This document shows positions 5,285-6,868 of a stretch of DNA of 64,000 nucleotides, piece by piece. Below the pieces are notes generated by a model. The model did not search any database, was not told the DNA's origin, and was given only the letters and a program-made list of their open reading frames with translations. Both the position numbers and the translations under genes were made by a program. Origin of the DNA: Pseudalgibacter alginicilyticus (GTDB lineage Bacteria; Bacteroidota; Bacteroidia; Flavobacteriales; Flavobacteriaceae); NCBI RefSeq assembly GCF_001310225.1, contig NZ_CP012898.1, positions 2,480,001 through 2,544,000 on the forward strand. Reading direction: 5' to 3'. Within the stretch, counting starts at the first letter, position 1; the number at the start of each line of letters is the position of its first letter.

Positions 5285-5629
5285 ATGCAGAAGTTTCAAG
5301 GCTTAATTTTAACGGTTGTATTAAGTTTCTTTACCCATTTTGTTTGCACATTAGAGGGTGAAGTGACTATTAATAATTATACGCCAACTCATGAGCTTCA
5401 TGATAATGATGGATTAAATACTGCTGCTATTACCATTGATGCTTCGCATGAAATATCATTGAATTTTGATGAACAAAGACAATTACATACTACTGAGCAT
5501 TTTTTCTCAAACCCATCAATACACAAATTATATTTAAATATTAGTTTAAGCTATTTAAAAATTTGTGATTTCTTTAATTTTAGCCAAACTATTGGCACCA
5601 TTATTTTCCCTTTTCATTCATTCTTGTAA
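5285..5629 (+). CDS. Small exported or membrane-associated protein of unknown function
   Basis: 114 residues with a hydrophobic N-terminus (GLILTVVLSFFTHFVC) that could be a signal peptide or a single membrane anchor. A polar middle part follows (NNYTPTHELHDNDGLNTAA), then a moderately hydrophobic C-terminal segment (LYLNISLSYLKICDFF). I do not recognise a family. A consensus promoter directly upstream and the absence of a competing frame support it being a real gene. The next gene follows after 50 bases and also encodes an N-terminal membrane segment, so the two may be expressed together. Confidence 0.5.
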   Translation: MQKFQGLILTVVLSFFTHFVCTLEGEVTINNYTPTHELHDNDGLNTAAITIDASHEISLNFDEQRQLHTTEHFFSNPSIHKLYLNISLSYLKICDFFNFSQTIGTIIFPFHSFL

Positions 5630-5679: not shown

Positions 5680-6222
5680 ATGATGGTTTTTATATTCAAA
5701 AAATTAATTAAAAAAAACAAGATGAAAATTTCATTAATAATTGTTTCTACGCTTTTAATTTTAAGCGTATTCGTTCCTATTTTATTATTTATTCTAAATG
5801 GAACAAAAAACACCTCAAACATTAAAAAACAAATTAACACATTAATAAAAGATAATGGCATAACATATGACATTAAAGAAATTTGGCGTAAAAATTTTAT
5901 TGCTATTGACAACAACCATAAAATAATAAGCTCCATTCAATTTAATGAAAATGAACCTTTTATTTCTATTATTAATTTAGCAGATGTAAAACAATGCCAT
6001 GTTATTAAAGATTCAAATATAATTAAAGGCAAACCCGTAAGTTTAAAAAAATTGGATTTAGAGTTTATTTTTAAGTCTTCAACAAAACCAAATGCAATTA
6101 TCAATTTTTTTAATATTGATAATGATTTAACAGAAGACTTTGAATTACAACGAATTGAAAAATGGCAAGCACTGATTAATAAAGCCATAACAGAACCACA
6201 AATTGCTAGAATGGCTTCTTAA
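5680..6222 (+). CDS. Membrane-anchored protein of unknown function
   Basis: 180 residues from the ATG at 5680; an ATG at 5722 (MKISLIIV) is an equally good start and places the membrane segment right at the N-terminus. One transmembrane helix (SLIIVSTLLILSVFVPILLFIL) is followed by a soluble domain of about 130 residues, rich in K, N and I, with no motif I recognise. The domain is probably periplasmic. It ends in a strong terminator shared with the convergent ubiquitin gene. Function unknown. Confidence 0.6.
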   Translation: MMVFIFKKLIKKNKMKISLIIVSTLLILSVFVPILLFILNGTKNTSNIKKQINTLIKDNGITYDIKEIWRKNFIAIDNNHKIISSIQFNENEPFISIINLADVKQCHVIKDSNIIKGKPVSLKKLDLEFIFKSSTKPNAIINFFNIDNDLTEDFELQRIEKWQALINKAITEPQIARMAS

Positions 6223-6228
6223 GCTATA

Positions 6229-6280
6229 AAAAAGAGTATGAAAGAATAAGGTTAAATCTTATTCTTTCATACTCTTTTTT
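6229..6280. terminator. Bidirectional terminator
   Basis: A perfect stem of about 21 base pairs (arms near 6230-6250 and 6258-6278, loop GTTAAAT) is flanked by A and T tracts, so it can end transcription from 5680-6222 and from the convergent ubiquitin gene. Confidence 0.85.
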
Positions 6281-6296
6281 AATTTATACTTATTAT

Positions 6297-6818
6297 TTAT
6301 TTCTTGATAAACTTAATAGTATTCTCATTTTCTAACTTCAAAAAGTATACTCCATTTGAAAAGTTTGAGATATTTATTTTTTGATTACTATTTAACATAC
6401 CTGAATAAATTTTTATTCCTAATACATTGTGTATTGAATAATGTTTACTAGCATTCAAACCCAATAATTGAATAAACTCAGTTGATGGATTTGGGAATAA
6501 CGCTAACTTAATGCTATTTAATTCAACATTGGCTATTCCAAGGGAAGACTGGACTAAATGAATTGTACTTTCTTTTTGAATATTATAATCCGCTAACGTT
6601 CTATCTTCTTCAAGATTTTTTCCAGCAAATATAAGCGTTTGAATATCAGGAGGAATACCTACTCTATCTTGAATTTTAGCTTTAACATTTTCAATGGTAT
6701 CATTAGCTTCTACCTCTAATGCAATTGTTTTCCCATCTAATATTTTAACAAAAATTTGCATGCTCATAACATTAAGAGACATAAATAAAACGGCAATAAA
6801 TAAGTAGTTTTTTTTCAT
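6297..6818 (-). CDS. Secreted ubiquitin with type IX secretion sorting domain
   Basis: 173 residues in three parts. Residues 1-19 are a signal peptide ending VMS, a good signal-peptidase I site. Residues 20-95 are ubiquitin: the mature N-terminus would be MQIFVK, as in eukaryotes, and over ubiquitin positions 1-70 I count 56 of 70 identities with the human protein. Conserved are L8, I44, H68 and V70 (the recognition patch) and the lysines K6, K11, K27, K29, K48 and K63; K33 is Arg. R42 is Thr and R72 is Ser, and the tail reads QSSLGIAN instead of LRLRGG, so E1 activation and conjugation are not expected. Residues 105-173 are a type A T9SS sorting domain ([22 protein letters not shown]). Codon use is AT-rich like its neighbours. 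It has its own promoter and stands alone. Bacteroides fragilis has a known secreted ubiquitin homologue, but without this tail. Confidence 0.93.
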
Positions 6819-6860: not shown

Positions 6861-6868
6861 CAAAACTA
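6861..6868 (-). promoter_or_regulatory. -7 promoter box of the ubiquitin gene
   Basis: On the minus strand TAGTTTTG matches TAnnTTTG. It lies 42 bases upstream of the ATG, giving a leader of about 35 bases. Confidence 0.5.

What the first reader, a model, noticed from the sequence alone, without database searches (positions are those of the whole stretch)
6297..6818. Bacterial ubiquitin built for type IX secretion
Seen: signal peptide, a ubiquitin moiety with 56 of 70 residues identical to human ubiquitin, and a T9SS type A sorting domain, all in one frame, with local AT-rich codons and an own promoter and terminator. The predicted signal-peptidase cut (VMS before MQIFVK) would leave the native ubiquitin N-terminus. 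Known: ubiquitin is not native to this phylum, though Bacteroides fragilis secretes a homologue taken from a eukaryote. Inference: this is a horizontally acquired ubiquitin displayed on the cell surface or released, able to be recognised by ubiquitin-binding proteins (L8/I44/H68/V70 kept, K48 and K63 kept) but not conjugated (no C-terminal Gly-Gly; R42, R72 changed). It could act as a decoy or inhibitor toward eukaryotes such as algae or protists.
Basis: partly seen in the sequence, partly recalled or inferred. Interest (0 to 1): 0.93.

Follow-up and report, generated by a model that had tools for sequence, protein, structure and literature searches.

The report
Secreted bacterial ubiquitin with T9SS tail
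A Flavobacteriaceae genome carries two genes for a ubiquitin copy built to be exported and probably tethered outside the cell, one branch of a scattered cross-phylum set of surface ubiquitins that looks more like weaponry against other bacteria than like a decoy for eukaryotes.

Summary
The minus-strand gene at 6297-6818 encodes signal peptide, ubiquitin (56/70 identical to human; Pfam E 6e-27) and a T9SS type A sorting domain (TIGR04183, 47 bits, cut-off 23). The model superposes on solved ubiquitin at about 0.5-0.6 Å. The host genome is one contig with SprA, the PorU sortase and a second copy of the same architecture (54% identical).

Secreted ubiquitins occur patchily in four phyla by isolate genomes (about eleven counting MAGs); 72 of 78 have a signal peptide just before Met1 of ubiquitin, usually followed by an anchor typical of the lineage (T9SS tail, autotransporter barrel, dockerin, IPTL-CTERM, SLH). 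Two sit inside phage structural modules.

The decoy idea is weakened: this copy keeps L8/I44/H68/V70, but ten T9SS-ubiquitins together keep only 30% of those positions, while the F4 face stays conserved. A stand-alone flavobacterial relative with BfUbb-like cysteines lies 88 bp upstream of a BSAP5a-family antibacterial pore-former. Best reading: a BfUbb-like antagonist of related bacteria, exported and probably tethered by the T9SS. Anatomy is firm; function is inferred. New variant of a known kind.

The parts
6297..6818 (-). Gene for the 173 aa secreted ubiquitin with T9SS sorting domain (stop codon 6297-6299)
   Evidence: domains; homologues
6762..6818 (-). Signal peptide, residues 1-19 ([19 protein letters not shown]), predicted signal peptidase I cut before ubiquitin Met1
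   Evidence: sequence; small residue at -1 in 10 of 10 homologues; same layout in 72 of 78 genomic relatives
6546..6761 (-). Ubiquitin domain, residues 20-91
   Evidence: PF00240 E 5.9e-27; AlphaFold2 model and Foldseek to PDB ubiquitins, rmsd 0.5-0.6 A
6501..6545 (-). Linker, residues 92-106, predicted disordered; probable site of sorting-domain removal
   Evidence: pLDDT below 50 at residues 92-103; cleavage site inferred
6300..6500 (-). T9SS type A C-terminal sorting domain, residues 107-173
   Evidence: TIGR04183 47.1 bits, PF18962 44.2 bits, both over cut-off
6861..6868 (-). Candidate Bacteroidota -7 promoter element TAGTTTTG (TAnnTTTG), 42 nt before the ATG
   Evidence: no clear -33 element
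6231..6277 (.). 20-pair hairpin with T run, a terminator probably shared with the convergent plus-strand ORF 5680-6222
   Evidence: 3 overlapping hits; 0.2 expected from shuffles

Best explanation
The gene makes a pre-protein that crosses the inner membrane by Sec, loses its signal peptide exactly before ubiquitin Met1, folds as a ubiquitin with a C-terminal beta-sandwich tail, and is carried across the outer membrane by the type IX system. There the PorU sortase removes the tail in the disordered linker and either attaches the ubiquitin by its new C-terminus to a surface glycolipid or releases it. It cannot be conjugated by E1/E2/E3 enzymes. Its most likely job is antagonism of closely related bacteria, in the manner of Bacteroides fragilis BfUbb: a non-catalytic protein that binds a bacterial target using a surface that differs between lineages. 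Shown here: anatomy, fold (predicted), secretion signals, presence of SprA and PorU, paralogy, purifying selection, and loss of the eukaryote-recognition face across most of the family. Inferred: actual secretion, anchoring rather than release, the antibacterial role, and the target.
For: Domains and signals; fold. SprA at 2750 bits and PorU at 1393 bits in the same genome. Same-architecture relatives in Lutibacter, two Algibacter, Seonamhaeicola, Kaistella and three unnamed Flavobacteriaceae, plus a second copy in this genome. Algibacter pair dN/dS about 0.21 for the ubiquitin part, so selected, but against 0.04-0.09 in four flanking genes, so faster. The I44 face is 33% and the F4 face 83% human-like across ten T9SS-ubiquitins (p 0.00015 and 0.02). 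In Flavobacteriaceae G166 a stand-alone secreted ubiquitin with a similar signal-peptide end (SLNVFS before MQIF, against SLNVMS here) and BfUbb-like C-terminal cysteine lies 88 bp upstream, same strand, of a full-length BSAP5a-family pore-forming toxin (584 bits, cut-off 500), between two insertion sequences; that toxin family passes its cut-off in 0 of 395 sampled phylum genomes. BfUbb is secreted, has its signal cut at Met1, kills other B. fragilis strains as a pure 76 aa protein, seems to need no immunity gene, and bovine ubiquitin is inactive (PMC5705921). Patchy presence and no conserved neighbours fit an orphan competition factor.
Against: No killing, secretion or binding was tested. 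The toxin pairing is a single case, and for a stand-alone form without the T9SS tail. The T9SS-ubiquitins lack the C-terminal cysteine of BfUbb. A tethered protein would not diffuse to a distant or periplasmic target unless it is released. The window copy keeps the I44 core 4/4 and the stand-alone forms 3-4/4, which fits poorly with that face having been abandoned in them.
Confidence: 0.46

Rival explanations
1. Eukaryote-directed mimic: surface or released ubiquitin binds ubiquitin receptors, E1 or deubiquitinases of algae, protists or animals and disturbs them.
For: This copy keeps L8/I44/H68/V70, K48 and K63. BfUbb inhibits ubiquitination in HeLa extract and forms a disulphide-type complex with human E1 in vitro (PMC3352274). 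Other bacterial secreted ubiquitins keep the I44 face at about 85%, many from rumen or gut, where eukaryotes are common.
Against: The recognition face is largely lost across the T9SS branch, R42 and residues 71-72 are changed in all ten, and no uptake route into a eukaryotic cell is apparent.
Confidence: 0.2
2. Adhesin or matrix module: the ubiquitin fold is reused as a stable surface domain for attachment to surfaces, glycans or other cells, without any link to ubiquitin biology or killing.
For: Across phyla the domain is the N-terminal cap of proteins with adhesin-like or anchoring parts: autotransporter barrels (11 of 83), dockerin (8), SLH, SdrD-B, InlB-type and MBG repeats. The F4 face is conserved in nearly all, which suggests one general binding surface.
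Against: The T9SS form has no other module besides ubiquitin and tail; the only studied secreted bacterial ubiquitin is a toxin; one relative is paired with a pore-forming toxin.
Confidence: 0.24
3. A selfish or neutral passenger: a mobile gene carried by phages and insertion sequences with no benefit to the cell.
For: Patchy distribution, no conserved neighbours, two copies inside phage modules, insertion sequences or integrase remnants next to several copies.
Against: Purifying selection in the Algibacter pair at a fixed chromosomal site (dN/dS about 0.2), intact frames in the copies read, an intact-looking signal peptide and tail.
Confidence: 0.1

Closest known systems
BfUbb, the secreted ubiquitin of Bacteroides fragilis (PMC3352274, PMC5705921)
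   Same: Eukaryote-like ubiquitin in Bacteroidota, Sec signal peptide cut exactly at Met1, no C-terminal Gly-Gly, no linked immunity gene, patchy presence between strains or genomes.
   Different: BfUbb is stand-alone, 76 aa, ends in cysteine and is found in culture supernatant; the window protein has a T9SS type A tail, no cysteine, and changed residues 71-72. BfUbb's reported target, an essential peptidyl-prolyl isomerase, comes from Jiang et al. (doi 10.1038/s41564-023-01541-5) and is known to me only from memory; the paper is not held.
T9SS type A cargo proteins anchored through PorU (PMC8545088, PMC12618676)
   Same: Sec signal peptide plus type A sorting domain; SprA and PorU present in the genome.
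   Different: Usual cargoes are enzymes or adhesins (own knowledge); here the cargo is a bare ubiquitin of 72 residues. No paper in the library held ubiquitin, type IX secretion and sorting domain together.
BSAP antibacterial pore-forming toxins (MACPF) of Bacteroidota (PMC12853789)
   Same: Eukaryote-like domains used to kill close relatives; one BSAP5a-family gene lies directly behind a secreted ubiquitin in a flavobacterium.
   Different: Unrelated fold and mechanism; no BSAP homologue of that gene was found next to the window gene or the other T9SS-ubiquitins.

Membership tests
Ubiquitin family (PF00240) | Ubiquitin domain by profile and fold | tested here: met
   93.7 bits against cut-off 25.4; Foldseek to PDB ubiquitin, E about 1e-10, rmsd 0.5-0.6 A
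Ubiquitin as conjugatable modifier | C-terminal LRLRGG able to be activated by E1 | tested here: not met
   Residues 70-73 read V-Q-S-S and the chain continues into linker and tail; R42 is T
T9SS type A cargo | Signal peptide plus type A C-terminal sorting domain | tested here: met
   TIGR04183 47.1 bits over cut-off 23; signal peptide judged by sequence only, no dedicated predictor was available
T9SS type A cargo | T9SS translocon and sortase in the same genome | tested here: met
   SprA TIGR04189 2750 bits; PorU NF033707 1393 bits; other components not searched
T9SS type A cargo | Export, tail removal and attachment to a surface glycolipid | not testable with these tools
   Needs proteomics or fractionation
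BfUbb-type secreted antibacterial ubiquitin | Signal peptide ending exactly at ubiquitin Met1 | tested here: met
   V-M-S before M; A, S or G at -1 in 10 of 10 relatives
BfUbb-type secreted antibacterial ubiquitin | C-terminal cysteine | tested here: not met
   No cysteine in the window protein; two of three stand-alone flavobacterial forms do have C40 plus a cysteine at or next to the C-terminus
BfUbb-type secreted antibacterial ubiquitin | Kills related strains | not testable with these tools
   Experiment needed

The most novel reading that the evidence does not exclude
Bacteria of many phyla display ubiquitin on their surface, with the native N-terminus exposed and through the anchor their lineage uses, and use it as a scaffold for recognising other bacteria; in Flavobacteriia the T9SS sortase fixes ubiquitin by its C-terminus to an LPS-type glycolipid, a bacterial form of attaching ubiquitin to a cell surface.
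Probability: 0.28. Interest if true: 0.88.

Novelty: new variant of a known kind. Interest (0 to 1): 0.7.

Why it matters
Ubiquitin is treated as a eukaryotic hallmark, with BfUbb as a near-unique bacterial exception. The data here suggest that exported ubiquitin is a recurring bacterial solution, carried in part by phages and insertion sequences and fitted to many anchors. A T9SS-exported form in a culturable family gives a direct way to ask what ubiquitin does outside eukaryotes. The loss of the I44 face alongside a conserved F4 face gives a concrete surface to test.

Tried and rejected
Recent transfer from a eukaryote shown by codon use: rejected, usage is native. Conserved partner or immunity gene: none found between loci other than the syntenic Algibacter pair. 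Single origin of all T9SS-ubiquitins: the ubiquitin tree is unresolved and does not reject one clade (p-AU 0.56), while the tail tree mildly rejects it (p-AU 0.04), so Kaistella may be a separate fusion; left open. Finding BfUbb in the PDB, or its mechanism paper in the library: not found. Link between BSAP5a toxins and ubiquitin elsewhere: no further family members over cut-off in 395 genomes. An E2 enzyme search in the own genome returned nothing but had no positive control, so it is not used as evidence of absence. Annotated phages: no match; plasmids: two weak or distant matches, one an annotated 'ubiquitin family protein' of Ruminococcus albus.

Full report
What is there. The minus-strand ORF at window 6297-6818 encodes 173 aa. 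Residues 1-19 are a signal peptide, 20-91 a ubiquitin domain (PF00240, 93.7 bits, cut-off 25.4) and 107-173 a type A T9SS sorting domain (TIGR04183, 47.1 bits, cut-off 23; PF18962, 44.2, cut-off 27). Fifty-six of 70 ubiquitin residues match human. AlphaFold2 on an alignment of ten homologues gives two confident domains joined by a linker with pLDDT below 50 at 92-103, and the first superposes on solved ubiquitins at 0.5-0.6 Å. Codon use is native and GC3 is the window median, so any transfer is old. A hairpin terminator lies between this gene and its convergent neighbour. A Bacteroidota-type -7 element lies 42 nt before the ATG, without a clear -33 partner.

The host. The genome is one contig of 3.99 Mb, with SprA and PorU. 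It holds a second gene of the same architecture, 54% identical, between a recF-like gene and a short ORF (names by eye). The window copy follows tex; in eleven relatives with tex, one of them with only 270 bp of downstream sequence, what follows tex differs and is never a ubiquitin. Neither copy has a neighbour shared with the other T9SS-ubiquitin loci.

Relatives in Bacteroidota. Same-architecture genes occur in Lutibacter sp. HS1-25, Algibacter lectus and A. miyuki, Seonamhaeicola algicola, Kaistella pullorum and three unnamed Flavobacteriaceae. Prevalence is 7 of 397 sampled genomes of the family and 6 of 395 of the phylum, counting all ubiquitin-domain hits. In the syntenic Algibacter pair the ubiquitin part has dN/dS about 0.21 (NG86), against 0.04-0.09 in four flanking genes: selected, but evolving faster than its neighbourhood. 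Stand-alone secreted ubiquitins exist too: one in G166 and a tandem pair in G717. Two of these three have C40 plus a cysteine at or next to the C-terminus; BfUbb is reported to end in cysteine (PMC3352274).

Relatives elsewhere. A pattern scan of one genome per species returned 186 related stretches, of which 80 were kept. Of 78 that could be read, 72 have a hydrophobic N-terminus, and 64 of those satisfy the -3/-1 rule with the cut directly before Met1 (a simple rule, not a trained predictor). Of 83 proteins scanned, 14 carry a T9SS tail, 11 an autotransporter barrel, 8 dockerin, 4 IPTL-CTERM and 3 SLH. Isolate genomes give four phyla (Bacteroidota, Pseudomonadota, Bacillota, Verrucomicrobiota); MAGs raise this to about eleven, with the usual binning caution. 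The family of Ruminococcus albus has 8 of 198 genomes with a hit. Two copies in viral contigs lie beside terminase and portal genes and between minor-tail and tape-measure genes, which looks like cargo of prophages.

What the surface says. Across the ten T9SS-ubiquitins the core and the 58-65 loop are about 91% human-like, the F4 face 83% and the extended I44 face 33%; against random sets of exposed positions the last is low (p 0.00015) and the F4 face high (p 0.02). The list of exposed residues is my own judgement, the sequences are related, and the permutation does not correct for that. The other bacterial ubiquitins keep the I44 face at about 85%. They were found with conserved peptides and are therefore biased, but copies found by profile search show the same tendency. 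The window copy itself keeps the I44 core, 4 of 4.

How it probably works. The only studied relative, BfUbb, is secreted, kills related strains as a pure protein, and seems to need no immunity gene (PMC5705921). In G166 the stand-alone ubiquitin lies 88 bp upstream of a full-length BSAP5a-family pore-former on the same strand, bounded by IS elements, a family not seen over cut-off in 395 phylum genomes. This single pairing places secreted ubiquitin in a weapons context outside the genus Bacteroides. Type A T9SS cargo of Porphyromonas gingivalis is cut by PorU and attached to anionic LPS (PMC8545088); type A tails are recognised by the PorV shuttle (PMC12618676). Whether the flavobacterial protein is anchored or released is not known. 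I therefore favour an exported, probably tethered, BfUbb-like antagonist of close relatives (0.46). An adhesive module (0.24), a eukaryote-directed mimic (0.20) and a mobile passenger (0.10) are the rivals.

Novelty. Secreted bacterial ubiquitin is known from BfUbb. The T9SS form and the cross-phylum anchor series were not found in the papers searched, a library that lacks most subscription journals. I rate it a new variant of a known kind.

Noticed in passing
L103:5114-7205 (Flavobacteriaceae genome G166): Stand-alone secreted ubiquitin followed 88 bp later by a BSAP5a-family pore-forming toxin on the same strand, bounded by IS elements with rve-type transposases: a possible two-weapon cassette.
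   Followed up: partly
L114:2322-2768 and L117:3935-5380 (IMG/VR viral contigs): Secreted ubiquitins with an IPTL-CTERM-like tail or an autotransporter-like C-terminus sit inside phage packaging and tail modules, as if carried by prophages as cargo.
   Followed up: partly
L100:804-1728 (genome G717): Tandem pair of stand-alone secreted ubiquitins, one with C40 and a near-C-terminal cysteine, the other without cysteine in the mature part.
   Followed up: no
L024, L027, L035, L047, L076: Some secreted bacterial ubiquitins keep the full LRLRGG before their fusion partner, so a eukaryotic deubiquitinase could in principle cut the partner off.
   Followed up: no
L120/L129 (Verrucomicrobia bacterium IMCC26134): Two secreted ubiquitin genes about 1 kb apart with similar downstream parts, suggesting local duplication.
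   Followed up: no
window 5285-5629 and 5680-6222, plus strand: Two short ORFs with no family match between a TerB-like gene and the ubiquitin gene; one has a membrane-type N-terminus.
   Followed up: partly
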